64,000 bases of DNA. It comes from Chimonanthus salicifolius. Taxonomy: Eukaryota; Streptophyta; Magnoliopsida; Laurales; Calycanthaceae. Position numbers and translations under genes: made by a program. The notes under the pieces were generated by a model that did no database searches, was not told the DNA's origin, and saw only the letters and a program-made list of their open reading frames with translations. Where the stretch lies: assembly GCA_013350335.1 (NCBI GenBank), contig CM023542.1:7302025-7366024 (forward strand), given 5' to 3'. Below are positions 14,691 to 61,802 of this stretch, one piece after another (position 1 is the first letter of the stretch; every line of letters starts with the position of its first letter).

Positions 14691-16432
14691 AGTAACATCC
14701 CGGGAGAATTAAAGCTCGTGGCAACAATTAATTGTTGGAATATATTTAAATTATCCTAATTATAATGTAATTAGGATGGTAGTTTGGGCTAATCTCTAAT
14801 TAAGAGATGCATTTGATTTATAATTAGTTAAGTGTTTGAGTTTGAGTGTGATAGCCCTAGGGTCGGCTAGGGGCTATAAATACATGTAATAGCATAGGGA
14901 TTTGATATAACACATAGATTTATCTTTTCTACATGGTATCAGTCAAAATTAGATCCTAGTAGACCTTCAATAACCAGTTTTTTTTCTCTCCCTCTGCCGG
15001 AGGAGATTCATCGGCAGAGGGAGTGAGGGAGGGAGGAAAACATATTCAATCGGCGAGATCCTAACTTCTGTCTTTCTCGGAGAGTAGTTTCTACTGCGGT
15101 CGTTGGTCTTCTCTCCCTCTGCCGCCCGTCTCATCTTGCAGAGGGAGAGGGAGGGGAGATACGTTCTATTGCTTATTGCTGGGTTTGAGACACGGCAACA
15201 CGGTTCTGATTTGTTCCAAGGACAAACCAAAGGGCAAGGAAGTCTTGCCATCTCGAGAGTTCTCGGGGTCAACCCTCTTCATATTTCAAATTTTTTTTAT
15301 AGATCAGTTTTCTTCACCCGTCTGATCAGATCTGCTTCCGCCACCTCTTGCTGCTGTTCAGTTTGAATGACCTTTCTCAAATCTGTGTGAGATCGGGACA
15401 GAATCTCTCTGATCTGTTGTCGTCACGCAGGCCACTTCTGCCGCAGCCTTTGCTGCTTCTGCTGCTTCCCAGATCACATCTCCTTCGCGACTATCCATCC
15501 GACTACCCGTTTCCGCTCAGCCCAGATCTCAGTTGGACTACCAGTTTCTGCTCAGCCCAGATCTCAGTTGGGATACCCTGTTTGGCCGCCACCAACGCTT
15601 TGCGTGAACAACCTTCGCTGCCTCTGCCCCTGCAACTCTTTTGCCCCTGCTTGCATGCAACAACAAGCAGGTTTGGGCCTTTTTTTGTTGCTACCATCCA
15701 TTTGTTCGTGCATTATTGTGCACAACTTCTTGCAACCAAATTTGTTGTCGCCGGAGTGTTGCAGATCAAAGCCAAGCCTCTGTTGTTGCTTATCCGTCCT
15801 CAGATCTGCATCTGTTAGCCCGAGCAGCCAATAATCCAGCATCGGTTCCCTCAAATCTGGGCCAGTCCCCGTCCCCTGCCATTGCTCATCTCTGTAGGAT
15901 CTCACTGGCCGGATGCTGTCACAGTCGTTCGTTGCTCCTATTGTTGTAGGCTGATTTCACTCAGCTCTACAGATCTGAAGCCAAGAGATCTGAGGACATC
16001 CACATACCACTGTCTCCTGCAGAGATCTTTCCTCCTTGCACCGCTCCTTGAATCTGTCTCCACAGACCGAAGTAAGTTCAGATCTGGTTTATCAGATTCG
16101 CCTCTCTCGCTGGCCGTGTCGCTGCCCTGCTTCTGCTCGCCATTATCAGGAGTGTTTTTTTGCGGCTAGCCAAGAACCATTTTGGTCTCCCTCTCTCGTG
16201 GCTGCCCTGCATCTTGAGGAATGCCCTTCCCTAGCCAAATCTATTGATCTCTCTGTTATCTGTTGGAGAGAAACCTGCATCCAATGAAAAGGGTCACCAT
16301 GGAGGAGGCTTACAGAATAAGAAGTTTCCTAATGTCAATGCCCCAAGTGCATTTCCATTTTGCAACTTTAGTCAGGAAATTAGACATGATATTCATCAAG
16401 TTCCTGTCTCAGACCACTTGCTGCAGACTCCA

Positions 16433-16670
16433 ATAGTTCCATCAGAAAGGAACAATCTTCTCTTATTTATTGTTCAATCACCATCATTGTTGAGAGCACA
16501 ATTGGGTGAATGCCTCAAGACAATCATCCATGTTGATTATCCTGAACAATGGCCAGGCCTGCTCCACTGGCTAAAGTTCAACCTACAAGATCAGCAAGTG
16601 TATGGAGCCTTATGTTTTGAGGATTCTTTCAAAGAATTTACAGACACCCTTTGCTATTTTGATGATTTGG
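16433..16670 (+). pseudogene. Captured importin fragment (importin-7/8, SAD2-like)
   Basis: Inside the LTR element, the open frame 16244-16840 contains [20 protein letters not shown], then [20 protein letters not shown] and [11 protein letters not shown]. These match the amino-terminal HEAT region of plant importin-beta family proteins of the importin-7/8 (SAD2) type. After YGAL the match continues one frame away ([10 protein letters not shown]), so there is a small indel. About 66 to 70 residues are covered, with no LTR-type protein around them. Upstream in the same frame, residues such as [20 protein letters not shown] are coding-like but unidentified and may be a second captured piece. The fragment is unlikely to be functional as an importin. 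Confidence 0.8.
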
Positions 16671-17184
16671 GGATTTCCGATATTTCACCATTGGTGCTGG
16701 ATCCGCTCTTGTTTGGACGGAATCATACAGTGTTGTCTGTTTGCAGATTTGATTGTTCCATATCTCAGCCTGCTTTTTGTAGATCTCCAGAACAAGATCT
16801 CACTCTCGTCACCGCTCTTCTTAGATCTTCTCAGTTTTAAGGTCTGACTCGTGTTATTGTTCCAGCCGATCTTAGTGCTGGCCATCTTCTTCCTCATAAG
16901 TGTTCTACCTTCTTCTCACTATTTTGTTGTTTCTTTTCGCCACAATCTGCGAGTTATGTGCCAAGAAGAAAGGGGGAGAACTGAACAAAGGAACGCAAAT
17001 TGCCCTTCTTGAACACGCTTGTTGAAGCTGAAGAAAGGGACACAAATTACCCTTCTCCGCCTATTTTGCTGAGCTGAAGTAAGGGACAAAAAATTGCCCT
17101 TCTCCGCCTATTTTGCTGAGTTGAAGTAAGGGACAAAAAATTGCCCTTCTCAGCCTTTTATTTGGAGGACTCTGATTCGTCCCC

Positions 17185-17480
17185 TTATTTGCTGGCCTTC
17201 ATGGCTACAACCTTTGCTGACCTTTTATGGTTACAGCCCCTTTGTTGGCCTTCATGGCTACAGCCTTTGCTAACCTTTCATGGCTACAGCCCCATTAACT
17301 GGCCTTTCATGGCTATAGCCCTATTTGCTGGTCTTTCATGGTTACAACTTCATTTGCTGGCCTTTCATGATTACAACCTCATTTGCTGGCTATGGCTATA
17401 GCCCCATTTGTTGGTCTTTATGACTTCAGCCTTTATTTGCTGGCCTTTATGGCTACAGCTATTGTTCGCTGGCCTTTATG
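17185..17480 (+). repeat. Minisatellite, unit about 29-30 bp
   Basis: Around ten imperfect units of the type GCTGGCCTTTCATGGCTACA followed by GCCCCATTT. The same minisatellite, reverse complemented, is in the sibling element at about 47860-48160, so it is a shared component of the family. Confidence 0.85.
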
Positions 17481-18018
17481 ATCTAATTGATCAATGTGAT
17501 GGCTTCAGCCCCTTGTTTTGCAGGTCACTCATTGCCTGCATTTATCGCATATTGCGATCATTGTTTGCCGGACAATTGTCTTACGACCACTGCCGTCATC
17601 CGAGCCTCTTTCTCTATTTCAGGCCGCCATTGGTGTTCGCCGCCTGTCATTTTGCAGCCAACCAACGCTGCCACATAAACACATATTTGCAGCCTGTCAA
17701 TGTTGCATTTCAACAAGTTTTGCAGCCAATCAGTTGTGATGCTTCAACAAATCTTCGTGGCCAATTGGTGTGCCACTTTTGCAGTTCACCTACCATTTAT
17801 TCACGTTCTAAGTTTCGCGTTCATCCATGCTTCAGTTTGCGGGGGCGTGTTGGAATATATTTAGATTATCCTAATTATAATGTAATTAGGATTCTAGTTT
17901 GGATTTATCTCTATTAAGAGATCTATTTAGATTAGAAGTGTAATAGCTCTAGGGTCGGCTAAGGCTATATAGAGTTGTGTAATACTCTTTAATTAATACA
18001 ATTTTCTCTTTTCTGACA

Positions 18019-19897: not shown

Positions 19898-22800
19898 TGT
19901 CACGCCCCGACCCGCCCAGTGGGCCCGGAACGCGACTGATTTTTTTTTTTTTTGAAAGGAAAGTAAACTAATCCACAAGCACTCTTACTGGGCCGGATCA
20001 ACAGTTAGGCCCAGCGGTTACACATCAGCCCGCTAAGAGGACTCAAACATGTACCATAAGCATGCCCCATAGACATAGCAAAACAACACAATAACATCCA
20101 CTAATAATAAGATCAAACAATTATTAACATTGATAAATCAATCCATAACATCGTCTCAAATGGCAACATAGCCGATTACAATAGTCAAATACAAATTAAG
20201 TACCACATCCGGTACTTAATACAAAAATAACGGTTCCGAGAACCAGCAGAAAGAGATCAGGGCATTCCGCTCCGGGGGAATCCCAAAACACTGCCTTGGC
20301 TCAAACGCCCTAAGTTTGAAAGAGAGGGTCCTCCTCCTCGGGTTCATCGCCTGAAAGGTGAGTGGTGTGAGCTAACAAGCCCAGTGAAGGATAATTAACA
20401 GTGCACATTAAGCAAATAGTAAAACAGGTTTACAACAGTTAATATCACATGCTTGATAACAGTAAGCATAATCTCAAATAAGATAATAACATCATCAACT
20501 ATCAATCACTGCCATTATCCACCGTAACGCCTGCCGACTACACTGAGACCAGTATTAAGTCCCGACACGGTCAAAATACATCCTTGCAAGTACATCTCCG
20601 GCTCTTAAACGTAACCGGTACTGACACCCTCAAGTCAGCAACTGACGACAGCATGGTCCGCCCATGGTCCAGTAGACATAAACCATCTCTCATATGGCCG
20701 ATATTGGTTCAATAGCCCAGGTACGTGGAAGCAGTCTTACATACACATACGGTCAACACCGTAATATCAAATAATCACAGCACTCTTACCATAGTGCATC
20801 ATGTATAGGCACCTGAGTGGGTTCATCAAAACCGAAACCACTCATTGCTCAATATAACACCTGTTTACAAAATCTGCAGAGTTAAGTTCCCTCACCGTGA
20901 TTGTGTGGTTTCGCGGTCTCTGTCAAACAACATACAAGTGCTCAATCAATATACATAACAAATACGTACATATACGTAGAATTTGGAAATCATGTATTTT
21001 CCTACAAAATATCCGGGTTTAATGGAATGAGTCTCCTATTTGGTTTCTATCCTCTTTAAATCATCCACAAGATAATAATATAATAAACATAAGGGGCTCA
21101 GTCCAAACTCATATTGTCTTCTGGGCATTGACCAGATTGACTTATTGAGTAAGGTCTAGATCCTCGGGTCACTTCTCGGTTGTCTTCTGGATAGGACCAG
21201 AGCTGACATTTTGAGTAGGCCTCGAGGTCACTCAGTGCCCGACTATAGTGTCGTCCTGAAAGTGAATCACTCAGTTCCCGACTAATGTCGGACTGAAAGC
21301 GTATACAATAGTATTTACACTATAAATAATAAGAGGAAAAAGGGTTAGTACAATTTTAATTAACAGGGGGTATAAATCGTAACAAATAGTTAAACATATT
21401 AAACAAATAATAATCAAGATTAAAACTGTCATCAAACAATATCTTATTATTTTTCAAAACAGTGTTCCTCGGAACATTACTTCGGAACTTGGGTCAGTGG
21501 CTTCGGATCATCCGAACCACACAAAACTGAGTCTCAGGCCTCGGAACTTGAGGCCTGACTTCGGATCGTCCGAAGACTGAGTCTCGGACCGTCCGAAGTC
21601 CAGAAAACGGAAAAACAGAAGTCTCGTGGGTCTGCAGATCTCGGAACATCCGAATACAGGTTCGGACCTTCTGAGGATGCTCGGACCTTCCGAGCTGGCT
21701 CGGTCCTTCCGAGCTGGCTCGGTTCTTCCGAAGTGGGTCTGGCTCACCTCGGGCGAACTGGGCTTCGGGTTGAAGCTCGGAACGTCCGAGGGTCACTGCT
21801 CGGACCGTCCGAACGTTCGGACCGTCCGAAGATCGGCTCTCGGACCTTCCGAGAGTCGTCTTCTCCGACTGTCTGCAACAGCAGACAGTCACGGCGGAAA
21901 ACAGGTGAAATGCGATTCCAGAAAGGGAGGGCTTCCTGGATTCGTTTTTCACATCCGTCTGGTCTGATGGACTCCTCTGGGAGTCCTCTTTCCATAGGGA
22001 GAGGTTTGGAGCTCAAAAGCTCAAAGGGTCATCCGATTTTAAGGGTAAATCCTCACGGGTACATAAAACCCATGGTTTTCCTTAAAACTTCAAAATCGTT
22101 TTTCTCCATCAAAACAGGGTCAAAATCAGTTTTGTTTGATTCTAAATCGGTTGAAATTTAAAAAGGAAAGCAATGGATACCTTGGTTTTGGTTCCTGGTT
22201 TGAAATTCGGATCTTTGGAAAATCTCCCACTTAGCTTACTGTTATTGAAAAACAGAAGCTCAGCAGGTCTCTTCGGATGGATTTTAAACAGAGATTAGAG
22301 AGGGAAGAAATGCAGAAATCTGCTGGGAATTCAAACGATCGGAAGAGGCTTGAATTTATAGGCTGGCTGGCCGGAAAATCGGTTGGGAGGATGGGACGGG
22401 ACGGCTGAACGAAATCATCACCGCCGAGCGGCCAGTGCACGCGGCATGCCGTGTGCAGGCTGCTCTGCTTTTGCAGATCAGTCCCTAAGTATTTCCCAAA
22501 TTGCAGAAAGGGCCTCAGATTAATAAAAACTGATTTTTTTGAACTATGAGTAATAAATTTAAGACTCCAAAATCAGATCCAACCTTACAGATGGGTTGGG
22601 TTTTTAAAACTTAGGTTACCATAAAAATTTCGTGAATTATCTCTCACTAAAAACCCTCGATTTAAACAAAAATCATATTTTATCCATAATTGCTTAATTA
22701 AACTAATGTAAAAATAACTCATTTGTAAATCTTATTTTGAGATGAAAGGAAATAACTAGATCAATATTAAAATGGTCTAACACCCAATACCATTTTCAAA

Positions 22801-23163
22801 ATTTATCTCTTTCCCGAAAATATTTAAAATAATTAAAACTCTCTTTCGGGGTTCCGACGGTCGATAAATAAATATTATTTTCTGAAACTAAATCATTTTG
22901 AAATAATAAATGCAAATCATTCCATAAGGAGAGTATTATTCACCAATAAAGATCATCAAATCACACAATTTAGAGAAATAATCACAACAAGCGGCAAATT
23001 ACCAAAATACCCCTCCAGCTGAACGGGCTGGATCTCTGAGCTCACGAGCTCGGATTGGGCCAAACTTGGGCTTTCCTCGAAGCCCTGATCGAAAACCTCG
23101 AGATCAACCGGTTAAACACGGAAATCAAGCTAAAACACTCCTAATCCGGGGCAGGGTATTACA
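19898..23163. mobile_element. Solo LTR, family A, copy 1 (3.27 kb)
   Basis: Starts TGTCACGCCCCGACCCG, ends GGCAGGGTATTACA, and is flanked by a perfect CTTTT duplication (19893-19897 and 23164-23168). The TG...CA ends and 5 bp duplication fit a solo LTR of a large, probably gypsy-type element. Reading in the minus direction (TGTAATACCC...GGGGCGTGACA) is likely but not proven. It matches 40067-43414 throughout. It contains no polyprotein. Its small open frames near 21494-22161 come from the palindrome array. Confidence 0.8.
21495..21862. repeat. Array of TCGGA-N3-TCCGA palindromes, copy 1
   Basis: About twelve imperfect 13-17 bp palindromes in roughly 370 bp, for example TTCGGATCATCCGAA, CTTCGGATCGTCCGAAG, CTCGGACCTTCCGAG and TTCGGACCGTCCGAA. 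Arms are conserved, the three-base centre varies, and spacing is irregular. The sibling solo LTR holds the same array. Confidence 0.85.
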
Positions 23164-40061: not shown

Positions 40062-40950
40062 GCTCTTATCACGCCCCGACCCGAAGGGTGGGCCTAGAAC
40101 GCGACTGATTTTTTTTTTTTTTGTAGATAAACTAAACCACAAGCATTCTTACTAGGCCGGATCAACAGTTGGGTCCAGAAGTCACACATGACCCCATCAT
40201 GTGGACTCAAACATGTACCATATGCCTGCCCCATAAAAATGGACATTACAATATCAACACATAACATGCTTAATCAAATCCAACATTGATTAATACAAAG
40301 CATAAGAAAATCAACCATTGATTCAACATTTCAAAATCATATCAGAGTAGCTATAGAAACGCAGCAATTTAATACATCACATTTAGACAAATTAAGTACC
40401 ACACCCGGTACTTGATAAAGGTAAACGGTTCCAAGAACCAACAAGAAAAATATAAGGGTATTCCCCTCAGGGGGAATCCCGAAACACCGCCTCAGCTTAT
40501 CCACCTTAAGCTTGATAAAGAGGGTCCTCCTCCTCGGGTTCATCGCCTGAAAGGTGAGTGGTGTGAGCTAACTAGCCCGGTGAAGGAAATATAACAATGC
40601 ACATTTAAATAAATAGAAAACAGGTTAGCAATAGTTCAATATCACATGCTTGATAACAATAAACATAATCTCAAGTAATACATCAACATCATCAATCACT
40701 GTCATTATCCACCGTAACCTCTAGGCATCATATTGACAACAATAGTATTAAGTCCCGACACGGTCATAATACATCCTTGCAAGTACATCTCCGGCACTCC
40801 CATGGCCGGTATCGACACCCTCAATAACTATCACCACCCATGACCAGTAGACGTAAACCATCTCCCATATGGCCGATACTGATTCAATAGTTCAGGTACG
40901 TGGAAACAGTCTTACAAACTCGTATGATCAACATCATATCATTCTCAATC

Positions 40951-41116
40951 ATCATTAGCACTCTTACCATAGTGCAACAAGTCTAGGCCAACATCATAAA
41001 CACTCTTACCATAGTGCATCAAGTCTAGGCCAACATCATAAGCACTCTTACCATAGTGCATCAAGTCTGGGCCAACATCATAAGCACTCTTACCATAGTG
41101 CATCAAGTCTGGGCAC
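40951..41116 (+). repeat. 42 bp tandem repeat inside solo LTR copy 2
   Basis: Four near-identical units of AGCACTCTTACCATAGTGCA followed by TCAAGTCTGGGCCAACATCATA. The corresponding place in copy 1 (about 20779-20815) has a single unit. Confidence 0.9.
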
Positions 41117-41764
41117 ATGAAAACCTATTTACAAAATCTGCAGAGTTAAGTTCCCTCACCGTTATGTATGGTTTACGCGGTCTTTGTTCAAACAACACAC
41201 AAGTGCACAATCAATATACAAATCAAATACATACACACGAGTAGTATTTGGAAATCACACGTTTTCCCACAAAATATCCAGAGTTCATGGAATTGAGTCT
41301 CCTACTTGGTTTCTATCATTTTTAAATCATCCACAAGATAATAATATAGTAAAAAAAAGGGCTCAGTCCAAACTCATATTGTCTTTTGGGCATTGACCAG
41401 ATTGACTTATTGAGTTAGGTCTAGATTCTCGGGTCACTTCTCGGTTGTCTTCTGGATAGGACCAGATCTGACATTTTGAGTAGGCCTCGAGGTCACTCAG
41501 TGCCCGACTATAGTGTCGTTCTGAAAGTGAATCACTCAGTTCCCGACCAATAGGGTCGGACTGAAAGCGGATACAATAGTATTTACACTATAAATAATAA
41601 GAGAAAGGGGTTAGTACATTTTTAATTAACAAGGGGGCATAAATCATCATAAATAATCAAATACATTAAATAATCATCAAGATTAGACAAAAACAATGAT
41701 TAAACAATATTTTATCATTTAAAAACTATGTTCCTTGAAACATCACCTCGGAACTGGGTACAGT

Positions 41765-42115
41765 GGCTCGGATCATCCGAACCACAAAATTAAGTCACTG
41801 GCCTCGGAACATGGGCCTGACTTCGGATCGTCCGAAGACTGGGTCTCGGACCTTCCGAAGTCCATCCGAACAGATGAAAACAGAGAAAACAGTCTCGGTG
41901 GGGCTGCAGAGCTCGGAACGTCCGAAGGTCTGGGTTCGGAACGTCCGAGTGAGTTCGGTACTTCCGAGCTGGGCTTGGTGCGTCCGAAGGGTCAGGTTCG
42001 CCTCGGGCGTAACTGGGCTTCGGGGTGAAGCTCGAAACGTCCGAGGGTCACGGCTCAGACCGTCCGAAGGTTCGGACCGTCCGAAGATCGGCTCTCAGAC
42101 CTTCCGAGAGTCGTC
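41765..42115. repeat. Array of TCGGA-N3-TCCGA palindromes, copy 2
   Basis: About eleven palindromic 13-17-mers in 350 bp, in the same order as in copy 1 at 21495-21862; some arms have decayed (GCTCAGACCGTCCGAAG, GCTCGAAACGTCCGAGG). Confidence 0.85.
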
Positions 42116-43584
42116 TTCCCCGACTGTTTGCACCAGCACAGTCACGGCAGAAAAACAGTGAAATGCGATTCCAGAAAGGGAGGGCTTCCCGGATTCAGTT
42201 TTCACATCCATCTGGTCTGATGGACTCCTCTGGGAGTCCTCTTTCCATAGGGAATGGTTTGGAGCTCAGAAGCTCACTGGGCCATGTGATCTTAAGGGTA
42301 AATCCTCACGGATACATGAAACCCATAGTTTTCCTTAGATTTTAAAACTGGTTTTTCTCTATCAAAATAGGGTCAAATTTGGTTTTGTTTGATTCTAAAC
42401 CGATTAGAATTGAAAGAGGAATGCAAAGGATACCTTTGCTGAGGTTCCTGGGCTGAAATTCGGATTTTTGAAATCCTTCCTAAGCTTCGGTTTGTAAACA
42501 GAGAGGCAATGGCAAGGGGTCTTGGTCGGGTTAACAGATAGCAAAGAGAAGAAAAGAAATTGTGGGAGTTTCAAACCGATGGGGACGACTGAATTTATAG
42601 GAATTCAGCCGGGGAGAGATGCCGGAATTCAGCTGCGGCGATGGGACGAGACGAAATCATCAGCCGGAAAATGGGCCGAGCAGCAATGCACGCGCCTGCA
42701 TGGCGTGTGCAGGTTTTCTGCTATTGCAGATCAGCCCCTCAATAGTTTCTATATTCCAGATAAGTCCCAGTTTTATTAAAAACCGTTTTTAAAACTAAAA
42801 GCGAAGATTTAAAAACTCAAAAACTTGATCCAACCTTACAGATGGGTTGGGTTTTGAAATTATTGGTCACCATAAAATTTTCAGAATTTATCTCCTACTG
42901 AAAATCATTTATTTAAATAAAAACCATAAATTTACACTATTTACTTAAATAAAGAATTGTTAAAATAACCAATTTGTAAATCTTATTTTGAAGTGAAATG
43001 AAATAACTAGACCATTCTTAAAATGTTCTAACATCAAATACAATTTTCAAAATTTATCTCCTTTCCGAAATCATTTAAAATAATTAAAACTCCCTTTCGG
43101 GGTTTTGACGGGCGGGATTTAAATGCCATTTTCTGAAAATAAGTTCATTTTAAAATCAGAAATGCAAATCGTTCATTAAGGAGAATATTATCCACCAATA
43201 ATATACACATATCAATATAATTTATAAAAACATAGCTAAAAGCAGTAAATTACCAAAATACCCCTCCAGCTTGACGAGCTGGATCTCTGAGCTCACGAGC
43301 TCGGATCGGGCCAAACGTGGGCTTTCCTCGAAGCCCTAACTGAAATCCTCGAGATTAACCGGTCAAACACGATTAACGAGTTAAAACACGCCTAATCTGG
43401 GGCAGAGTATTACAGCTCTTGTTAAGAGTGGTATTGGATTGTTTCTCTATTTCTTTGGAGAAAATAATTTTGTGAAAAAATTATATATATTTGATTCATG
43501 TTATCCAATAAACAATTAAGCACTATGAAATTTGGCGTTTGTTATTTGCATTCATAGTTTTATTTTCATTTAGAATGTATAACG

Positions 43585-44666: not shown

Positions 44667-45526
44667 CAGGGTCGTCTTGACCATTAGTCAAGAAAGGCGG
44701 TCGCCTTAGGCCCCCGGATGAATGAAGGCCCCTCTCACCGTGGCGCACTGTGTATTTCTAAAATTTCTCAAATTTAATATTCCGACTAATTACGATAACT
44801 TTGATAAAAAAACTTTAAGACTTTAAGTTCTTTTGGCACTCCCAAATACTTAAAACACAGTCTTTTACAAATAAGGGCATCCCTCAGCTGTGTCAAAAAC
44901 ACACTTTCGAAAGTCCAAACAACAAACCATAAAAACCGTTGAACTCCAAATTCAAAGCTGAACAAATATGTGATATTTAAAATCTTAAATCTTTCAAATG
45001 ATTGTTTACAAAAAATATGTGATCTTTTCCCATCCCAAATCCCGTCCCTTCTTCTTCAAAAAAAAAAATCCAGTTAAACAATCATTTAAAAGATCTAAGT
45101 TTTCAAATTTCATATATTTGTTTAGTTTTGAATTTGGAGTTCAACGGTTTTCACGGTTAGTCGTTTGGACTTTCGAAAGTGTATTTTCGACACAGCCGAG
45201 GAATACCCTTTATTTGTAACATACTGTGTTTTAAATATTTGGGAGTGTTAAAAGACCTTAAAGTCTTAAAGTATTTTTATCAGGTTATCGTAATTAGTCT
45301 GGATATTCAATTTGAGAAATTTTGGAAGTATATAGTGCTTAAAAAAAAAAAATTAAAATTTTAAAGGTGATTTTATTATTTAAAACTATATGAATTATAT
45401 ATTTTTTTTAACTAATACACTATGCATATGTAGACCGTCCGGACGAATGGAATTTATGCATGAACTCCAAGAAGGCTCCATTTAAATTTTTTGTCTTAGG
45501 CCTCAACTTGTTTCTAAATGGCCCTG
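44667..45526. mobile_element. hAT element carrying a large palindrome
   Basis: Flanked by a perfect 8 bp duplication TGGGCCAC (44659-44666 and 45527-45534). Ends are CAGGGTCGTCTTG and, inverted, CAGGGCCATTTAG, with CCTTAGGCC-type strings just inside both ends. Most of the interior (about 44748-45335) is one palindrome with arms of roughly 270-290 bp: CTGTGTATTTCTAAAATTTC on the left, its inverse near 45318, and CACTTTCGAAAGTCC opposite GGACTTTCGAAAGTG near the loop. No transposase. Confidence 0.85.
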
Positions 45527-46063: not shown

Positions 46064-49000
46064 CTAGTAAAGAGTCCTCAATCTCTTATTTGAGGGGTTT
46101 TTCATCTGAGGAACTGTGAAAACATCGTCTGTCCGCCTCCACCCTGCGCGGCTGCTGTCCGCCTCATCTGAATTCTTGTAACCGATTCCATTGTCCCAAT
46201 CTAAGGTGGCAGCTGGGTAAAGAGGGTCTTGAACCTGAGGAACCCACATTGGCAAATCTTCCGAGACTATGCCAAAATCTCCATCCAGCTCTGCCTCTAC
46301 AAACTGGAACAGATCATCCGTCTACAAAACAGATAGTAGTAAGGAGAGTCTAGAAATGAGAGTAGATTTTAGAGAGGGAGAGTGTGTGATGTAGAACTGA
46401 CTCCAAAGCATGATATTGTCTGCTTTAATCGACCTGAAATTCACTAAACTAGACTCACATTTTGCTTTTCAGCACATAAAAACACATCATGCCTGCATAG
46501 GAGGAGCTCAACTATTTGTCCGGGACTTCGAAAACTTACTCTTCTGCTAGTGTCCAACCCAAAATCCACTAGACTCACAAGCATGGGTCGAAAACTATTT
46601 TTCTCTCTCCTAATTTTTTTTTAAAAAATCTACGAATATTAGCCAATATCGGTGATATATATCGAATATCTATTTCGACCCCTACTCACAAGTGAGACTC
46701 ACTGGCAGCGTGACTTGGAATCTACCAGGCTCTGCATCAGAATGGATTAAGCCAATCCACCATGTTGTGACAATGAACCAGTCTAACTTGTATAATGGGC
46801 CAATTTATTCATCAAATGGATTTTCTTCCCAATTGTGAACTGTTTTTCCCATTGGGATCTAGGGCTGCGTTTGGATGGAGGTAAATTTTGGAAGGATTAT
46901 CCAAGGTAGCCCCTATGAAAACCCTCCCTCTTAGTTACCAGACAGAGGTAATGGGGGACCTTACCCCATTCAAATGCAACCTAGGATTGCTGATGGCTTG
47001 TATTGGAATTGGTGATATTTAATCAATTGGCTGGGCCAGTCAGCATTTTGTGATACTAAACACAACAGTCCAACCCATGTGTTAAATTGATAGGCGAAAC
47101 TGTATTTTCAAGCTGGGTTTATGTCATTAGTTCAAAGAATTATTTGGGTTCAGCCAGAATCAACTTGAACATGTATTTTGTGATGTCAAATGAAATTCAA
47201 TTTATTTATTAATTGAGTTTTTAATAATCAATTGTATGAGATCTGACTATAATAAGATCAGACTCTATTTCTATACTGTATATGGAATTATTGTTTTTGG
47301 ATAATATAGTAATTTCAATTTTATATTGGAGGTGAGACTAATTACATAGATAAATTAAACCACGTGCAAGCATCAAGTAAGTTCGAGAAGAGTCAAACCC
47401 AAAACCTCTATCCGACTCTAGAGCTATCATAATCAGATTCAAACAGTTAACTAATTATAAATCAAATACACCTCTTAATTAGAGGTAAAACCAAACTAGA
47501 ATCCTAATTACATTATAATTAGGATAATCTAAATATATTTCAACACTCCCCCGCAAGCTGAAGAGTGGATGAACGCGAAGAAACACCAGGTGAAGTGCAA
47601 AAGTGGTACACCAACTAGCCATGGAGATTTGTTGAAGCAGCACACTGATTTGTTGCAAAACTTGTTGAAGAGGCAGCATTGACTGGTTGCAAATATGTGT
47701 TTATGTGGCAGCGTTGATTGGCTGCAAAATGACAGGCGACAAACACTAATAATGGCCTGAAATAGAGAAGAGGCTCGGACGACGGCAGTGGCTGTAAGAC
47801 AATTGTCCGGCAAACAATGATCGCAATATGCGATAAATGCAGGCGATGAATGGCCTGAAAAATAAGGGGCTGAAGCCATTACATCGATCAATCAGATCGG
47901 AAAGGCCAGTGAATAATAGTTGTAGCCATAAAGGCCAACAAATGTGGGCTGAAGCCAAGAAAGGCCAGCAAATGAGGGCTGAAGCCATAAAAGGCTAGCA
48001 AATGAGGGTTGAAGCCATGAAAGGCCAACAAATGAGGGCTGAAGCCTTAAAAGGCCAGCAAATGGGGCTGTAACCAGGAAAAGTCAGCAAATGGGGCTGT
48101 AGCCATAAAAGGCCAGCAAATGAGGCTGTAACCATGAAAGGCCAGCAAATGAGGAGGACGAATGAGTCCTCTAGATAAAAGGAGTGGATGAATTCCACAA
48201 CAAATGGACATGTGTCCAAAACATGTCGTCTTATTTTCGAGAAACGACAAAACAAGACGTGCTCAAATGAAGGACAAGTTGTGTCCCTTCTTCAGTAGCA
48301 AAGTAGGAGGAGAAGGGCAATTTGTGTCCCTTTTTCAGTAGCAAAGTAGGAGGAGAAGGGCAATTTATGCCTTTCTTTAGAGCGTCGACGGAGGAGAATA
48401 CTGACAATTTGTGTCCCTTTCTTTAGAGCGTCGACGGAGGAGAATACTCGACTTCACTTCAACAAACAATAGGAGGAGAATGACAGTTTGTGTCCCTTTC
48501 TTCATCTCTCCCCCTTTCTTCTGAACACAGATTGCACCAATCTTGGCGAGAAGAAACAACAAAACAAGTGTGTGGACTAGAAAATCAGATCGGTAAGACG
48601 AAGATCTGAATACAGCTGGCGGCAAAGGCGACGGCGGAAGCGACGGTGTTGCAGGAGAAGTTGCAACAAAAGCAAACACAGGCTGGACTGCTATATAAAG
48701 TCCAGGAACATGAAATGTCTCAAACATTATTTCCCCATTGTATTCACGACTTTCAGGAGCAGTGAGTGGGCTCTCAGTCAAAAGGAAATAATGGTCCTCA
48801 GGTCACATCTCAAGTAATTGAATATGCACTGCTGCCAAAATCTCTCCATTGCATCCCAATTCTCCACTTGACCATGGTGTATTGGATAGCTAAGACAATA
48901 AGTGCTGCATGAGAGAGAACGCAAGAAAGTTATCCTTTGAAGGTCAAGATCGGAGCAGACTATCCATGGTCTGGGCAGGAACGAAGGTGTATATCATTCA

Positions 49001-52000
49001 CTAATTGATCACCGATATGTCTCAAAAACATAGGGAGAATCGCCACAAGAACACCATTTACTTTAATTGATAACAGCTTGAGATCTTGTCCATCCAGAAT
49101 CAAAGGGCAGGAACCTCCATTCAGAGTGGACGATTGTCTTGACCTCACCCAATTAAAATTTCAATTCACCAAGAAAATATAATAATCTCTGGCTGTTCTG
49201 CTGTCTCCACTTGAATTGTAATCAAGTGTAGTATTTGAGAATCTTCCACACGGCAGATCTGGTTGACGGTGGCTGTTGGAGGGTTGGTCGAGATCAGATC
49301 AGAAACAATGGATGAAACACTCATCTGGACCGGATTAATTGTTTAAACAGGCAGCAAGAACATCACCAAGAAAAAAGAATGCAATTGGCGTTGAAGAGGG
49401 TATTCTGTGCAGCAGATACATCACATGACAGCAGGTAGCAAAGGGCAAAGGCTGTTGATATGGTGAGCCGGCGACAATATGAGAAAACAACAAACAAAGG
49501 GTGCAGGCGTTCACACACCGACCTGAGGGGAACTGGGCAGATCTGAAACTGAGAAATCCAGATCTGAAAAACACCTTTCTGGCGAGAAGTAACAAGATTT
49601 GAAAAGCTAGATCTAAAAAACCTGAGCGACGACTGCAAATAGGAACACCAAATGCAGGAGGAAGAACAGCAAACGCCAGATCTGCAAACGGAATGCAAAG
49701 CAAAATCCCAAGCTAGATCAGATCTGAGAGAAAAATCCAGATATATGCAGATCGGATAGGCTGATGCAGAGCTCTCTTCCCCTTCAATGATGCATTAGCG
49801 TGTGCACCTGTGCAGATCTAAACGTCGGATAGCAGATCTGAAGAACCATAGATCCAAGAAGACATGGACTGGAACGTGGCTGTTGTGAACAGAACCGACA
49901 GCAGCGTTGTGTCTTAGATCTGAATCTGAGAAGGGCGTGACTGGTGCACAGAACAATGGGCGATTGATCTAAATGCCCTTCCCTCCCTCTGCCGAGGTAT
50001 CTCCCCCGGAGAGGGAGAGAAGAAGAGGTGTGATTATTGAGCCTCACTCAATAGGAACGAATTCTTGCTCTGATACCATGTTAGAAAAGAGAAAGTTGTA
50101 TTGAATATCTAAACTATTACATATATATATAGCTTCTATCCGACCCTAGAGCTATCATAATCAGACTCAAACAGTTAACTAATTATAAATCAAATACACC
50201 TCTTAATTAGAGGTAAACCCAAACTAGAATCCTATTACACTATAATTAGGATAATCTAAATATATTTCAACATGAATGAGTTTGATTACTAATTTAGTTA
50301 GTGGTTTCTAGTTTACAGTTGGTGGATTGAGTCGAAGTCAATCTCTTGAAGGTTGGTTGGGTTTAAGAACTGATTGGGTTTAGATGGAGCCAATTTCTGA
50401 TGCTGTTATGCTTTTGTTTAGATGCGAACGAGAGTCATACATTAGTTGTGAGGGAGAAAATCTAAGGATAGCTAGGTCTCTAAGCCACAACATGTGACTC
50501 AGGATTACCTAACCGAATGGGATGGTTAGTGATGTCCTATCCACTGGAGAACCTTGTTTAAAGGGGATTGTTGGGATGCAAACGGGAGTCCCACATCGAT
50601 TGTGAGGGAGAAAATCTGTTGAACCTCAATGACCAGATTAACCAGCTATTCAAACAGTCAAGATCGAAGTGAGAGAGTGTGAAAGAGAGAGGTGGTGGTG
50701 GTGGTGGTGCAAACCTTAGAAAGACAGTCAGAAGGCGGAGAAGAGGAGCCAAGCAAGTCCTCGACATGCCAGCCAGGAAGTGTCTTAATCAGGTACTCGG
50801 AGATACTGCTTGTGCAGATTTCTTCGTTTCTAGGATCTTTGTTCGACTCCTCTACGGCGGCCTTTTCGAAGGTGGAAGGAGAAGGAAAATCTGGTTTCTT
50901 GGTTTTGTTTTTCTTCACAAGCTGCAGAGGGCAGTGAGCGGCAGCTGTTGAGGGAGAAGGGATGGAAGAAGAAAGCTTGACGCCGGTGAGTAGAAATCTG
51001 CTGTGCTTTCTCGTCAGATCGTTGGCAGTGTGGATGGGCAGATCGCAGTCCCTGCACAGAATTGCACGGTCCTCTCTACAGAAGAGAGAAGCCCTTCTCT
51101 CCTGTCAAGACACCATTTTCATCCATCATGAACAATGGTTTCCAAAATTTAAAAATATGTATTTCTTTCAAACAAAATTAAATTTGTTAAAAATATTTTT
51201 TTTCTAAATATGAAATCTTCAAAAATTACTGTAATTAAATCTAATTAATCCATATTTTTGAGCCTAGAGATTAAAAAAAATCTAAATTGATTAGTTCAAT
51301 TAAAAAGATTTTTTAACTCTTTTTTTTTTATTTATGTATGGAAAACTGTGAGATACCCAGTGTAAAAGTTCCACGGGTGAGCCCACTATCCTTACGGCAC
51401 ACCAAAGTTAGGTCATGGGGGCTTGAACCCGCGACCTCCCACTTCCATATTTTTTAACTCTATTTTGAAATATAGACTTTTTGATAAATCAAGTTTTATA
51501 GTAAACGAAAATTTTAGTATGTAAACTTCTATGAGTTGGTCTCTAGTTGATCCTGACTCTTTTCAAGGTGGCTTTTAAACTCTTAAGGTCCTCAACGAGT
51601 CAACATGACTCAGTTTTGCATGGACAGTAATTACCAGTTACAAGTCAACTTCAGCTAATTTGAGTAGGCCAAAATAGACTCAACTCGATGTAAACTCTAC
51701 AAAGCCCAACAACGTTCACAACTATCATTTATAAAGTATTTGTAAATATTTTTTTGTTGATGGCGAAAGGTATCCAAGTGTCTCATCGGACTAGTCCATG
51801 CACACCTCCTACACACATGTCGGGTTCAAGCAGGGTTTAAAATTCGGTATCGACCGATATTTTTCTCTTCATTATTTTTTTTAAAAAAAAGACCACTGTT
51901 ATTGTGATATCGGCCGATATGATAAAACCGATATTTGGACCCCTTGAGTGACATCTTACTCTGTACATATCTTATGAAGAGTGTCCATTCATTAAAGTTA

Positions 52001-56289: not shown

Positions 56290-56524
56290 GAGGATGGAGA
56301 AAACTGAAGAGGAATGAGAAGAAAGAAAGACAGAATCCTGAGTTTGTAGAATATCGCATGAAAGAAAATCCAGCGACAGAGATGGAAAAGATCGAGAGAG
56401 AAAGAAAAAGAAGAAAGGAAAGAGGGAATCCAAAGAAGAGAAAAAAACAAGAGAGACGGAAAAGGAGAGAGAATCGGAGAGAGAAACTGAGTCGACCCAA
56501 GTGACTCGGACTCGGTATTCCGAG
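56290..56524 (+). repeat. Flank repeat F, copy 1
   Basis: Purine-rich 235 bp segment (GAGGATGGAGAAAACTGAAG...GACTCGGTATTCCGAG) immediately upstream of the copia element. It recurs twice downstream of the 3' LTR (61265-61487 and 61580-61802) with a 12 bp deletion and small changes. Confidence 0.9.
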
Positions 56525-56734
56525 TTGAGTTATTTTTATTTAGGATTTGTTAAAGCTGTTGAAATAACCCTATGTTTTAGGGAAGTTGCTAGAGTTTGAA
56601 TGTTTCTTTAGGAGGATCCCTTGATTTTAGGTACTGTTAGTCATGGGATCATGCTGCTATTCTTTCTGTTTTGTAAGGCTATTTAAGCTACTTTTCTCAT
56701 TCAATAAATTATCTATTTCTAACATTTGGCATCA

Positions 56735-57044
56735 GAGCCAGGTTGGGGGTTTGAGTATCAAGGAAGCAGAAAGATCTGCAGAAGCAAGGGAGAGGACAGC
56801 TGCAGAAGACAGGCAAAGGGCTGCAGAAAGAGCAGCTACAGAAGCACAGGAAAGTGCTGCTGTGGACAGAGCTGCATCAGAGGTGCGGCTTAGAGCAGAG
56901 AGAGCAGCAGTGGAGAGAGCTGCTGCTGAAGCTCGAGAGAGAGCTGCTCAAGAAGCTCGAGAAAGGGACAGTGTTCTCACTTGTAGCAGCAATATCAAAT
57001 CAGCAGTCTTCTCACTTGCAGTAGCAAGATCAAATTACTCTTGA
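56735..57044 (+). other. Leader region with Ala/Glu/Arg-rich coiled-coil-like frame
   Basis: An open frame covering 56643-57044 enters from the 5' LTR and, between primer site and gag, encodes repeats such as AERSAEARERTAAEDRQRAA and RAAAEARERAAQEARERDS. Composition is that of a charged alpha helix. It may be only a GCAGAA/GCTGCA-type repeat expansion in the untranslated leader. No family recognised. Confidence 0.5.
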
Positions 57045-57077
57045 CCGAAGCAGCAAGTCTTGCAGTTGCAAGTCTCA

Positions 57078-60000
57078 ATGTCGACTGAGGGAAGTAGTTT
57101 TGTTCAACCATCCATCCCACGTTTCGATGGTCACTACGACCATTGGAGCATGTTGATGGAGAACTTCTTGCGATCAAAAGAATACTGGAGTCTTGTGGAG
57201 AATGGAATCACAGTTTATGCAGAAGGGACAGTGTTGACAGAAGTTCAACTCAAGGCCCTAGAGGAACAGAAGCTCAAAGACTTGAAGGCCAAGAATTACT
57301 TGTTTCAAGTAATTGATCGAGCTATCTTGGAGACAATTCTGAAGAAGGATACATCAAAGGATATCTGGGATTCCTTGAAGAAAAAGTATCAAGGGACAGC
57401 TAGAGTCAAACGTGCACAATTGCAAGCTCTTCGAAAAGAGTTCGAGATGTTGCAAATGAAGAATGGAGAAATGGTCGTTGACTACTTTGCTAGAACACTA
57501 ACTGTAGCAAACAAGATGAGGATACATGGAGAGAAAATGGAAGATGTAGCAGTGATTGAGAAGATTCTCAGATCTATGACACCTAAATACAACTATGTTG
57601 TATGTTCAATTGAAGAATCAAATGATATTGATGCTCTTTCAATTGATGAATTGCAAAGTAGTCTGCTGGTACATGAATAAAGGATAGTTTGTCAAGAGAT
57701 GAACGAACAAGCCCTCAAGGTTAGTCAAGAGAATTACACACCAGGAAGAGGAAGAGGCCGAGGAGGTTTCAGAGGTCGTGGAAGAGGGAGAGGCCGACAA
57801 GGTTCGTTTGACAAATCAGCTGTGGAGCGCTACCATTGTCATGAACTTGGACATTTGCAATATGAATGTCCCCAGAAGGAGAAGGAGAACAAGGCTAATG
57901 TGGCTGAGACTGAGGAGGAGATGTTGCTGATGGCATATGTTGAAAAGGAAGGTGATCAGATGAGCAATACTTGGTACTTGGATTCTGGATGCAGCAATCA
58001 CATGAGTTGGAACAAAAAACTGTTTTCGAAGATGGATGAATCCTTCAGGGATAATGTGAAACTCGGAAACAACTCCAGTCTTCGTGTCATGGGAAAAGGC
58101 AACATAAGGATTGAAGTCAATGAAGTGATGCACTGTATAACTGAGGTATTTTATGTTCTTGAGTTGAAAAGCAATCTGATTAGTCTTGGTCAGTTGCAGG
58201 AAAAAGGAATTGTCATCATGATTCAAAAGAACTCTTGTCAGATTCATCATCCTGACAAGGGTTTGATCATTCAAGTTGATATGACTTCTAACCGCATGTT
58301 TCTACTCAAAACTGGAGCATCAGTTGAGAAACAAATGTGTTTCAAATCCACAACTGAAGAGGAGATGTGGATGTGGCACTACAGATTTGGACATCTAAAC
58401 TTCAATGGTCTCAAAGCACTTCAACAAAAAAATATGGTGAAAGGTCTTCCTCTACTGCAAGTCGCTTCGAAAGTTTGTGAAGAATGTATGGTAGGAAAGC
58501 AACATCGTGAGACATTTCCTAAAGAGAGCAATTGGAGAGCCACACGGGTACTTCAATTGGTGCACTCTGACATATGTGGGCCTATCAACCCAATCTCCAA
58601 CAGCAGCAAAAAGTATTTCATAACCTTCACTGATGATTTTAGTAGGAAAACATGAATATATTTCCTTGCTGAGAAGTCTGAAGCTCTAGTAGTTTTCAAG
58701 AAATTTAAGGCCTCTGTTGAAAAAGAAACTGGTGTGTCTATTAAAGCTCTTCGAACTGATAGAGGGGGAGAATTTACTTCCAATGAGTTTGTTAATTTCT
58801 GTGAGATGAATGGTATACACAGGCAATTAACTACAACTTACTCACCACAACAAAACGGTGTGGCTGAAAGAAAAAACCGTACCATTATGAACATGGTAAG
58901 GAGCATGCTTGCAAGAATGAAGGCACCAAAGAGATTTTGGCCAAAAGCTGTAAACTGGAGCTCACACATCCTTAACAAATGCCCTACTCATGCTGTGAAG
59001 GATGTTACACCAGAGGAGGCATGGAGTGGCAAGAAACCCGAAGTGAACTATTTTAGGGTGTTTGGTTGTTTGGCTTTTGCTCATACTCCAGATAATCTAA
59101 AAACCAAGCTTGATGACAAGAGCAAAAAGTGTGTGATGCTTGGAGTCAGCGAAGAGTCAGAAGCCTATAGACTATACAATCCAGAGACTCAGAAGATCAT
59201 AATCAGTAGAGATGTGATATTTGATGAAGCTAGTGGTTGGGACTGGAGTAATAAACAAGAAAAGAGAGCTGGTGTTGATCTTGAAGAGACTGAAACCGAG
59301 GAAGTTGTTGAAGAAGTCACAGCTAGAGAAGTCGAAAATGAACCTGTTGAGCACAACTCACCAAGAATTAATGAAGCTTCACCAAATGTACCAAGGTAAA
59401 GAAGAACTCCTGGTTGGATGACAGACTATGTGAGTGGTGGTGAGTTTTCAGATGATGATAACATTGCTCAATTTGCTTTGTTTGCTAGCAATGATCACAT
59501 TACATTTGATGATGCTGTGAAGAGTTTGAAGTGGAGAAAAGCCATGGACTTGGAGATACAAGCAATTGAAAGAAATGATACATGGGAGTTGATTGACTTG
59601 CCTGAAGGAGAAAAAACAGTGGGAGTGAAGTGGATATTCAAGACCAAGTTCAAAGAAAATGGGGAGATCGACAAGTATAAAGCCAGGTTAGTAGCTAAAG
59701 GTTATACTCAAGAATATGGTATTGATTATTCAGAAGTATTTGCTCCTATGATTCGCCATGATACCATACGCTTGGTTATATCCTTAGCTGCACAGAATGA
59801 TTGGTCAATCTATCAACTCGATGTGAAGTCTGCATTTTTATATGGAGAGCTCAATGAACAAGTGTACGTCAATCAACCTGCTGGATATGTGCAAAGAGGG
59901 AAAGAACAGAAAGTTTACAAATTAAAGAGGGCCCTATACGGACTAAAACAGGCTCCGAGAGCTTGGTATAGTCATATAGAGTCACACTTCTTGAAGAACG

Positions 60001-61034
60001 GTTTCACCAAGTGCCCATACGAGCACACTTTATTTATCAAGCATGGAAAAGAAGGGAAGATTCTCATTGTATCTTTCTATGTGGATGATCTTATTTTCAC
60101 AGGAAATAATGAAAATATGTTCAAAGAATTCAAGAAGTCTATGATGGAAGAATTTGAGATGACAGACTTGGGAAAGATGCACTATTTCCTTGGAATTGAA
60201 GTGAAGCAGTCAAGCAATGGGATCTTTATTGGACAAAAGAAATATGCTAAGGAGATTATCAAAAGATTTCACATGGAAGATTGTAATTCTGTTCAAAATA
60301 CTATAGTTCCAAGAACAAAGTTCAGTAAGGATGTGGGAGGAGAGAAAGTCGACAGCACTCTCTACAAGCAAATAGTGGGAAGCCTAATGTATCTAACTGC
60401 TACAAGACCTGATCTAATGTTTGTTGTGAGTCTTATTAGCAGGTACATGGAATCACCTACTGAACTTCATTATCAAGCAGCTAAGAGAGTGCTTCGTTAT
60501 CTGAAAGGAACAACAGATCTTGGCTTATTCTACAAAAAGGAAGCTGGGGGTAAGCTAATGGGATTCAGCGACAGTGACTATGCTGGGGATCTTGACGACA
60601 GAAAAAGTACATCTGGATATGTGTTCATGCTAAGTTCAGCAGCTGTTGCTTGGTCATCGAGAAAACAGCCGGTTGTCACTCTTTCTACAGCAGAAGCCAA
60701 ATTCATAGCAGCAGCGTCATGTGCATGTCAAACTGTTTGGCTGAGAAGGTTGCTCGAAGAATTGTGTTTTAAACAGGATAAGCCTACTGTGATCTTCTGT
60801 GATAATAGCTCTGCCATTAAACTATCCAAAAATCCAGTAATGCATGGAAGGAGTAAGCATATTGATGTCAGATTTCATTTTCTTCGAGATCTCGTCAAAG
60901 ATCAAGTTATTGAGTTAAAGCATTGTTCAAGCAATATGCAGGTTGCTGATATCCTAACTAAGCTATTAAAGTTGGAAGCTTTCATAAAGATGCGAGAATC
61001 ACTTGGGATCTGTTCGAATTTGTGTTTAAACTGA
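57078..61034 (+). pseudogene. Copia gag-pol polyprotein with three in-frame stops
   Basis: One reading frame of 1318 codons without a frameshift, broken by TAA at 57678 (codon 201), TGA at 58653 (codon 526) and TAA at 59397 (codon 774). The ATG at 57078 (MSTEGSSFVQPSIPRFDGHY) is the family's usual gag start. Order: gag (FDGHYDHWSMLMENFL), zinc knuckle (RYHCHELGHLQYEC), protease (WYLDSGCSNHMS), integrase (HYRFGHLNF, CEECMVGKQH, HSDICGP, RTDRGGEF, QQNGVAERKN), reverse transcriptase (ARLVAKGYTQ, YQLDVKSAFLYG, FYVDDLIFTG) and RNase H (GFSDSDYAGD, STAEAKFIAA, KHIDVRFHF). The first knuckle Cys is Arg, and the usual STAEAE is STAEAK, probably loss of a catalytic acid. The element could not move without help. 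Confidence 0.95.
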
Positions 61035-61172
61035 AAGCTTAATCGCTTTTCAGTTTAAGGAAGGATGTGAAGTTGTTATTTAGGATTTGTTAAAGCTGTT
61101 GAAATAACCCTATGTTTTAGGGAAGTTGCTAGAGTTTGAATGTTTCTTTAGGAGGATCCCTTGATTTTAGGT

Positions 61173-61802
61173 ATTGTTAGTCATGGGATCATGTTGTTAT
61201 TCTTTCTGTTTTGTAAGGCTATTTAAGCTACTTTTCTCATTCAATAAATTATCTATTTCTAACAGAGGATGGAGAAAACTGAAGAAGGAATGGGAAGAAA
61301 GAAAGACAGAATCCTGAGTTTGTAGAATATCGCTGAAAGAAAATCCAGCGACAGAGATGGAAAAGATCGAGAGAGAAAGAAGAAGAAGAAAGGAAAGAGG
61401 GAACCCAAAGAAGAGAAAAAAACAAGAGAGACAAAAAAGGAGAGAGAAACTGAGTCGACCCAAGTGACTCGGACTCGGTATTCCGAGATTGTTAGTCATG
61501 GGATCATGCTGTTATTCTTTCTGTTTTGTAAGGCTATTTAAGCTACTTTTCTCATTCAATAAATTATCTATTTCTAACAGAGGATGGAGAAAACTGAAGA
61601 AGGAATGGGAAGAAAGAAAGACAGAATCCTGAGTTTGTAGAATATCGCTGAAAGAAAATCCAGCGACAGAGATGGAAAAGATCGAGAGAGAAAGAAGAAG
61701 AAGAAAGGAAAGAGGGAACCCAAAGAAGAGAAAAAAACAAGAGAGACAAAAAAGGAGAGAGAAACTGAGTCGACCCAAGTGACTCGGACTCGGTATTCCG
61801 AG
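61173..61802 (+). repeat. 315 bp tandem duplication: LTR tail plus flank repeat F
   Basis: Unit 1 (61173-61487) is the last 92 bp of the 3' LTR plus F copy 2; unit 2 (61488-61802) repeats this almost exactly, with about one base change (ATGTTGTT against ATGCTGTT). After unit 2 the sequence continues GTTGAGTTATTTTTATTTTTT, which also fits the DNA bordering the 5' LTR at 56525-56540. Confidence 0.93.

What the first reader, a model, noticed from the sequence alone, without database searches (positions are those of the whole stretch)
47407..50272. Second member of the same family with two other host genes: ARP3 and an M1 aminopeptidase
The minus-strand sibling carries a 75-residue ARP3 fragment and a separate N-terminal aminopeptidase fragment, each broken by frameshifts. 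Two related elements with different cargo imply repeated capture, similar in spirit to Pack-MULEs but by an LTR element. The intron-free ARP3 stretch suggests an RNA route such as template switching.
Basis: partly seen in the sequence, partly recalled or inferred. Interest (0 to 1): 0.87.

Follow-up and report, generated by a model that had tools for sequence, protein, structure and literature searches.

The report
Retrotransposon carrying pieces of spliced genes
This is a small plant retrotransposon, apparently without genes of its own, that picked up pieces of the spliced messages of two ordinary plant genes; relatives in the same genome carry pieces of other genes.

Summary
Window 47407-50272 (minus strand) is a non-autonomous LTR retrotransposon: 5' LTR, primer site, purine tract, and a 3' LTR that is truncated in this copy. 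It holds a real ARP3 piece (48951-48663) and a real M1-aminopeptidase piece (49167-49052), both sense and frame-broken. Donor genes lie in the same assembly. The ARP3 piece crosses an exon junction exactly, without the donor's 73-bp intron. The M1 piece fuses two exons separated by 1,392 bp in the donor, with a 23-nt deletion beside the junction. The sources were therefore spliced RNAs. Two further copies (97%, 95%) carry the same cargo. Twenty relatives were fetched: 19 show two LTRs, and 18 of 18 scored by script have perfect 5-bp target duplications. They share LTRs and a 3' cassette, but interiors differ: an importin-like piece spliced exactly in window element A; GH35, ArfGAP and re-ordered PP2A-B56 pieces in others. 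Exon-only capture by LTR elements is known (maize Bs1, soybean TRIMs); varied cargo within one young family is the interesting part. Autonomous partner, species and full family size were not established.

The parts
50079..50272 (-). 5' LTR of element B (TGTTGAAATA...TTCTAACA)
   Evidence: Sequence read directly; 96% over 139 nt to the 3' LTR; other copies have 195-196-bp LTRs
50067..50078 (-). Primer-binding site TGGTATCAGAGC directly after the 5' LTR (initiator tRNA-Met type, label from recall)
   Evidence: Sequence; the same or nearly the same motif after the 5' LTR in most of the 19 members printed
49168..50066 (-). Leader and 5' interior; only about the first 100 nt are shared with sibling A and several relatives, the rest is of unknown source
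49052..49167 (-). M1 aminopeptidase piece: exon B nt 4-50, a 23-nt deletion, last 3 nt of exon B, exon C nt 1-67; the 1,392-bp intron is absent
48952..49051 (-). About 100 nt between the two cargo pieces, source unknown
   Evidence: and alignments stop at its edges
48663..48951 (-). ARP3 piece: about 90 nt of exon 2 and 206 nt of exon 3 joined at the exact splice junction; one base missing at ~48802 breaks the frame
47546..48564 (-). 3' cassette shared with sibling A and the relatives, containing ~30-bp tandem repeats (47930-48166)
47546..47554 (-). Purine tract GCGGGGGAG just before the 3' LTR (polypurine-tract-like)
   Evidence: Sequence
47407..47545 (-). 3' LTR, truncated in this copy (about 139 of ~195 bp)
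14733..18018 (+). Sibling element A of the same family, with an importin-like piece (about 16448-16640, exon junction at 16494/16495)

Best explanation
The interval is a non-autonomous LTR retrotransposon that gained its cargo from processed mRNAs. Most likely element RNA and host mRNAs were packaged together in a particle supplied by an autonomous element; during cDNA synthesis the reverse transcriptase left the element template, copied a stretch of ARP3 mRNA and, in the same or another round, a stretch of M1-aminopeptidase mRNA, and returned to element RNA. The chimera kept both ends needed for replication, integrated, and moved again with its cargo. Shown: LTR anatomy, target duplications in relatives and in one B copy, cargo identity, intron loss against donor genes of the same genome, sense orientation, further copies with the same cargo, different cargo in siblings. 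Inferred: template switching in a particle, the order of events, enzymes supplied in trans, and that the cargo is a non-functional passenger.
For: ARP3: the donor has a 73-bp GT-AG intron and the element aligns across that junction without a gap. M1: two exons 1,392 bp apart in the donor are fused. Sibling A: donor TTGTTGAG|GTATG and CTACAG|AGCACAG joined exactly, ~3.7-kb intron gone. Mobility: B has two more full-length matches with the same cargo; the C4 copy has identical 195-bp LTRs and a CTTAA duplication; 18 of 18 scored relatives have perfect 5-bp duplications. Orientation: ARP3, M1 and importin pieces are sense, and in 15 relatives scanned the Pfam hits at E<=1e-3 are sense (4 of 15 members) with none antisense. 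L026 has two B56 pieces in the reverse of donor order with a 6-nt overlap, as jumps between templates would give. The ARP3 search listed no free intronless ARP3 copy: near-ARP3 hits were four intron-bearing genes and three element B copies, the rest actin-like at 60% identity or less.
Against: The M1 junction is not clean (23 nt lost). Microhomology was not shown at the ARP3 or M1 edges. About 1 kb of B's interior has no known source. The C1 copy (L003) has no matching target duplication, and the window copy has a truncated 3' LTR, so its own duplication cannot be read. No autonomous partner was identified. The B56 case says nothing about splicing: its two donor stretches lie ~204 bp apart, about the length of coding sequence between them, so no intron is evident there.
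Confidence: 0.82

Rival explanations
1. Processed pseudogenes of ARP3, M1 and importin first arose elsewhere, and the element picked them up later at the DNA level (nested insertion, gene conversion or end joining).
For: It would also give intronless cargo.
Against: No free intronless ARP3 copy among the 67 matches (69 candidates, all scored). It needs two steps for each of several genes. The pieces are internal mRNA stretches with both edges inside exons.
Confidence: 0.1
2. Transduction by read-through: the element was transcribed together with a neighbouring gene and the chimeric transcript was spliced and reverse transcribed.
For: A published route for retroelements (PMC13317346, section 4 read).
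Against: Two genes on different contigs (C1 and C5) in one element; pieces lie between the PBS and the 3' cassette and are bounded on both sides by element or unknown sequence; B56 pieces re-ordered.
Confidence: 0.06
3. DNA-level capture as in Pack-MULEs, copying genomic DNA.
For: General resemblance: short elements with varied gene pieces.
Against: Introns are missing at all three donor junctions tested; LTRs, PBS and 5-bp duplications; no inverted repeats found within 47300-50400.
Confidence: 0.02

Closest known systems
Gene-carrying TRIMs such as soybean GmaRetroS15 (PMC4717578; section 13 and search passages read)
   Same: Short non-autonomous LTR elements with 5-bp duplications, exon-only fragments, sometimes from several genes, and several copies after capture.
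   Different: Those TRIMs are 1.17-1.45 kb, from 7 of 289 subfamilies. Here most members are about 2.4-3.5 kb (one 1.5, one 5.0 kb) and siblings of one family carry different genes.
Maize Bs1 (described in PMC13317346, section 4 read)
   Same: An LTR element with pieces of three host genes, exons only (exon-only statement from PMC4717578).
   Different: Here many relatives with differing interiors, and donors at 93-100% identity for the best pieces in the same genome.
Gene fragments in maize LTR retrotransposons (PMC2774510; passages read)
   Same: 425 intact elements with gene fragments, at least 189 independent captures.
   Different: No element there had fragments of more than one standard nuclear gene under the conditions used; element B has two.
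LTR-captured genes of rice and sorghum (PMC3726574; passages read)
   Same: Host genes inside LTR elements (672 and 1,343).
   Different: Based on annotated genes; the word intron does not occur in the main text, so the route was not examined by intron loss there.
Pack-MULEs
   Same: A recurrent gene-fragment-carrying family.
   Different: DNA transposons that carry introns too (statement from PMC4717578); here LTR replication and spliced sources.

Membership tests
LTR retrotransposon (non-autonomous) | Two direct LTRs with TG...CA ends | tested here: met
   LTRs in B (3' one truncated), full in L002 and L003; two LTRs in 19 of 20 relatives
LTR retrotransposon (non-autonomous) | 5-bp target-site duplication | tested here: met
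   18 of 18 scored relatives; B copy L002 CTTAA/CTTAA; B copy L003 none; window copy not readable; A 4 of 5 bases (TTAAT/CTAAT)
LTR retrotransposon (non-autonomous) | PBS after the 5' LTR and purine tract before the 3' LTR | tested here: met
   Read in the sequence
LTR retrotransposon (non-autonomous) | No gag/pol coding | tested here: met
   Longest stop-free stretch in B is 143 codons; none of the seven B translations given to Pfam matched gag or pol. Pfam hits at E<=0.01 in 15 relatives, both strands, include no gag or pol
TRIM | Very small size (most under 1 kb in PMC4717578; gene-carrying ones 1.17-1.45 kb) | tested here: not met
   B copy 2,910 bp; 19 relatives 1.5-5.0 kb
TRIM | Short LTRs (roughly 100-250 bp, from recall) | tested here: met
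   about 195 bp
LARD | Long LTRs and several kb of non-coding interior (from recall) | tested here: not met
   LTRs of about 195 bp
Ty1/copia superfamily | pol with integrase before reverse transcriptase | not testable with these tools
   No pol in the element; partner not identified
Pack-MULE | Terminal inverted repeats | tested here: not met
   No inverted repeats of 20 nt or more found in window 47300-50400
Pack-MULE | Genomic capture including introns | tested here: not met
   Introns absent at three junctions

The most novel reading that the evidence does not exclude
A dedicated exon-shuffling retroelement family: its conserved ends act as a chassis, perhaps with the tandem-repeat 3' cassette making the polymerase prone to leave and re-enter templates, while its interior is continually rewritten from co-packaged mRNAs and from other members. 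It would be an LTR counterpart of Pack-MULEs that samples the spliced transcriptome.
Probability: 0.25. Interest if true: 0.8.

Novelty: new variant of a known kind. Interest (0 to 1): 0.58.

Why it matters
A young family (LTR divergence 0-4.2% in the 18 relatives measured) lies in the same assembly as intact donor genes, with one piece 100% identical to its likely donor over 191 bp. Rate, orientation, junction chemistry and RNA preference of capture by LTR elements could therefore be measured directly instead of argued from isolated old cases. It also bears on how often plant genomes make new exon combinations by reverse transcription.

Tried and rejected
Exon boundaries of ARP3 were first guessed from indels among 120 plant ARP3 proteins. 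That suggested the cargo lay within one exon; it was wrong, since the donor has an intron at that point, and was dropped. An extension of the M1 piece into exon A was tested and rejected (135 of 500 shuffles as good). PDB search of the short M1 ORF found nothing relevant, and Pfam missed the M1 and importin pieces, so Pfam undercounts cargo. Weak hits not counted: Methyltransf_29 in L022 (0.006, sense), DUF1442 in L014 (0.009) and Tmemb_185A in L023 (0.005), both antisense. UPRTase in L018 (1.4e-4) is below Pfam's cut-off and is tentative. The ArfGAP donor, total family size and an autonomous partner were not obtained; the genome search stayed busy, and no search for the partner was answered or, beyond an LTR-end pattern, sent. 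Literature: 7 searches; titles and abstract starts showed no account of this family; most subscription papers are not held.

Full report
What is there. On the minus strand the interval reads: 5' LTR (50272-50079), primer site TGGTATCAGAGC (50078-50067), leader and interior of mostly unknown source, an M1 aminopeptidase piece (49167-49052), about 100 nt of unknown source, an ARP3 piece (48951-48663), a 3' cassette with ~30-bp tandem repeats, a purine tract, and a truncated 3' LTR (47545-47407). The longest stop-free stretch is 143 codons. Of seven translations given to Pfam only two matched at E<=1e-3, both Actin.

Is the cargo real? tblastn with 120 plant ARP3 and 120 plant M1 proteins hit the interval for 120 of 120 each. 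Shuffled controls stay far below for ARP3 and below for the main M1 HSP, but not for the second M1 HSP taken alone. The ARP3 stretch downstream of the frame break matches PDB ARP3 at E 9e-17 and the upstream one at 6e-14.

Donor genes. The window lies in an 852.6-Mb assembly of 591 contigs. ARP3 occurs as four intron-bearing genes on C1. Element B is 195/209 identical to exon 3 of the two closest and 82-83% to the other two. Donor exon 2 ends CATCATGGTCAG|GTATGG and exon 3 begins TTATACAG|GTCGAG; the 73-bp intron is absent from the element and the alignment crosses without a gap. M1 lies on C5, with a further copy on C539. Exons B and C are 1,392 bp apart with GT and AG ends; in the element they are fused with 23 nt lost beside the junction. 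Exon C is 65/67 identical to paralogue L052.

Sibling A. Window 14733-18018 shares LTR, leader and 3' cassette with B. Its cargo matches C3:51327487-51327533 and C3:51331242-51331387 at 96%; the donor's TTGTTGAG|GTATGACA and CTACAG|AGCACAG are joined in A as TTGTTGAGAGCACA, removing about 3.7 kb. The name importin (IPO7/8-like) is from recall; Pfam gives only Xpo1 at E 0.15. This stretch of A has two near-identical copies on C6 (98% and 97%).

Copies and mobility. B has two further full-length matches, C4 (97%) and C1 (95%). The C4 copy (L002) has two identical 195-bp LTRs and a CTTAA duplication; the C1 copy (L003) has two 196-bp LTRs with 3 differences and no matching duplication. So the cargo moved on after capture.

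The family. One search scored 40 of 1,907 candidates and listed 88 matches, so size is a lower bound. I fetched 20 relatives; 19 show two LTRs and L015 shows one in the stretch taken. Perfect 5-bp duplications: 18 of 18 scored by script; L026 was left out of that count but shows CAAAC on both sides in its printed flanks. L010 and L011 are identical over the compared interior with the same duplication, so probably one insertion copied by a segmental duplication. LTR divergence is 0-4.2% in the 18 measured.

Other cargo. Pfam was run on 15 of the 20 (L011, L017 and L020 resemble scanned ones; L015 and L019 were not scanned). Sense frames gave GH35 (L010, 5.8e-7), ArfGAP (L014, 4.9e-34), PP2A-B56 in two pieces (L026, 6.3e-32 and 1.1e-25) and, below cut-off, UPRTase (L018, 1.4e-4). 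Eleven of 15 gave none at E<=1e-3. Antisense frames of the same 15 gave none at E<=1e-3. Since Pfam missed both M1 and importin, these are lower bounds. In L026 the B56 pieces stand in the reverse of the order at C1:42722953-42723596, overlap by 6 nt in the element, and match it at 100% over 191 nt and 97% over about 249 nt; paralogues show the same native order. The donor spacing (~204 bp) equals roughly the coding length between the two Pfam stretches, so this case is not evidence on splicing. Interiors also share patches of 61-337 bp at 77-97% identity in differing combinations, setting aside the near-duplicate members.

Mechanism. Partial, sense, spliced, sometimes re-ordered pieces placed between the two ends needed for reverse transcription are what switching between co-packaged RNAs would give. 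Splicing and orientation are shown; switching is inferred. Nothing indicates a function for B's cargo: the frames are broken.

Known or new. [quoted passage not shown] Bs1 in PMC13317346, section 4). Maize had 425 gene-carrying LTR elements, none with more than one standard nuclear gene under the conditions used (PMC2774510, passages). In seven library searches I saw no account of one LTR family with this range of cargo and inter-member mosaics; that is a statement about those searches only. I call it a new variant of a known kind.

Limits. Species unknown; autonomous partner, full family count and remaining donors not obtained; about 1 kb of B's interior has no known source; microhomology not shown at the ARP3 and M1 edges.

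Noticed in passing
window 14733-18018: Sibling element A carries an importin-like piece with an exact splice junction; other stretches of its interior match further places in the genome (C2, C5, C6, C7, C11) and may be other captured or shared patches.
   Followed up: partly
window 56359-61787: A copia-type element with gag-pol-like ORFs (name from recall); 300-bp stretches at 61173 and 61488 are a 100% identical direct repeat 315 bp apart, as if its 3' end were duplicated. It gave no blastn match to element B.
   Followed up: no
window 19945-23163 and 40109-43414: A pair of repeats about 20.2 kb apart, 79-96% identical in pieces, with similar arginine/serine-rich ORFs; kind not determined.
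   Followed up: no
window 44873-45210: Inverted repeat with 136-nt arms, 88% complementary, 66 nt apart.
   Followed up: no
window 836-2283, minus strand: ORFs that look like the 3' end of a plant LINE reverse transcriptase (from recall, not searched).
   Followed up: no
L010 and L011 (C4:24.48 Mb and C4:23.99 Mb): Two members with identical compared interiors (1,250 of 1,250 nt) and the same target duplication, suggesting a recent segmental duplication or an assembly duplicate.
   Followed up: no
G000 C1:9.09, 11.02, 43.43 and 44.15 Mb: Four ARP3 genes in one genome: two near-identical and a more diverged pair.
   Followed up: partly
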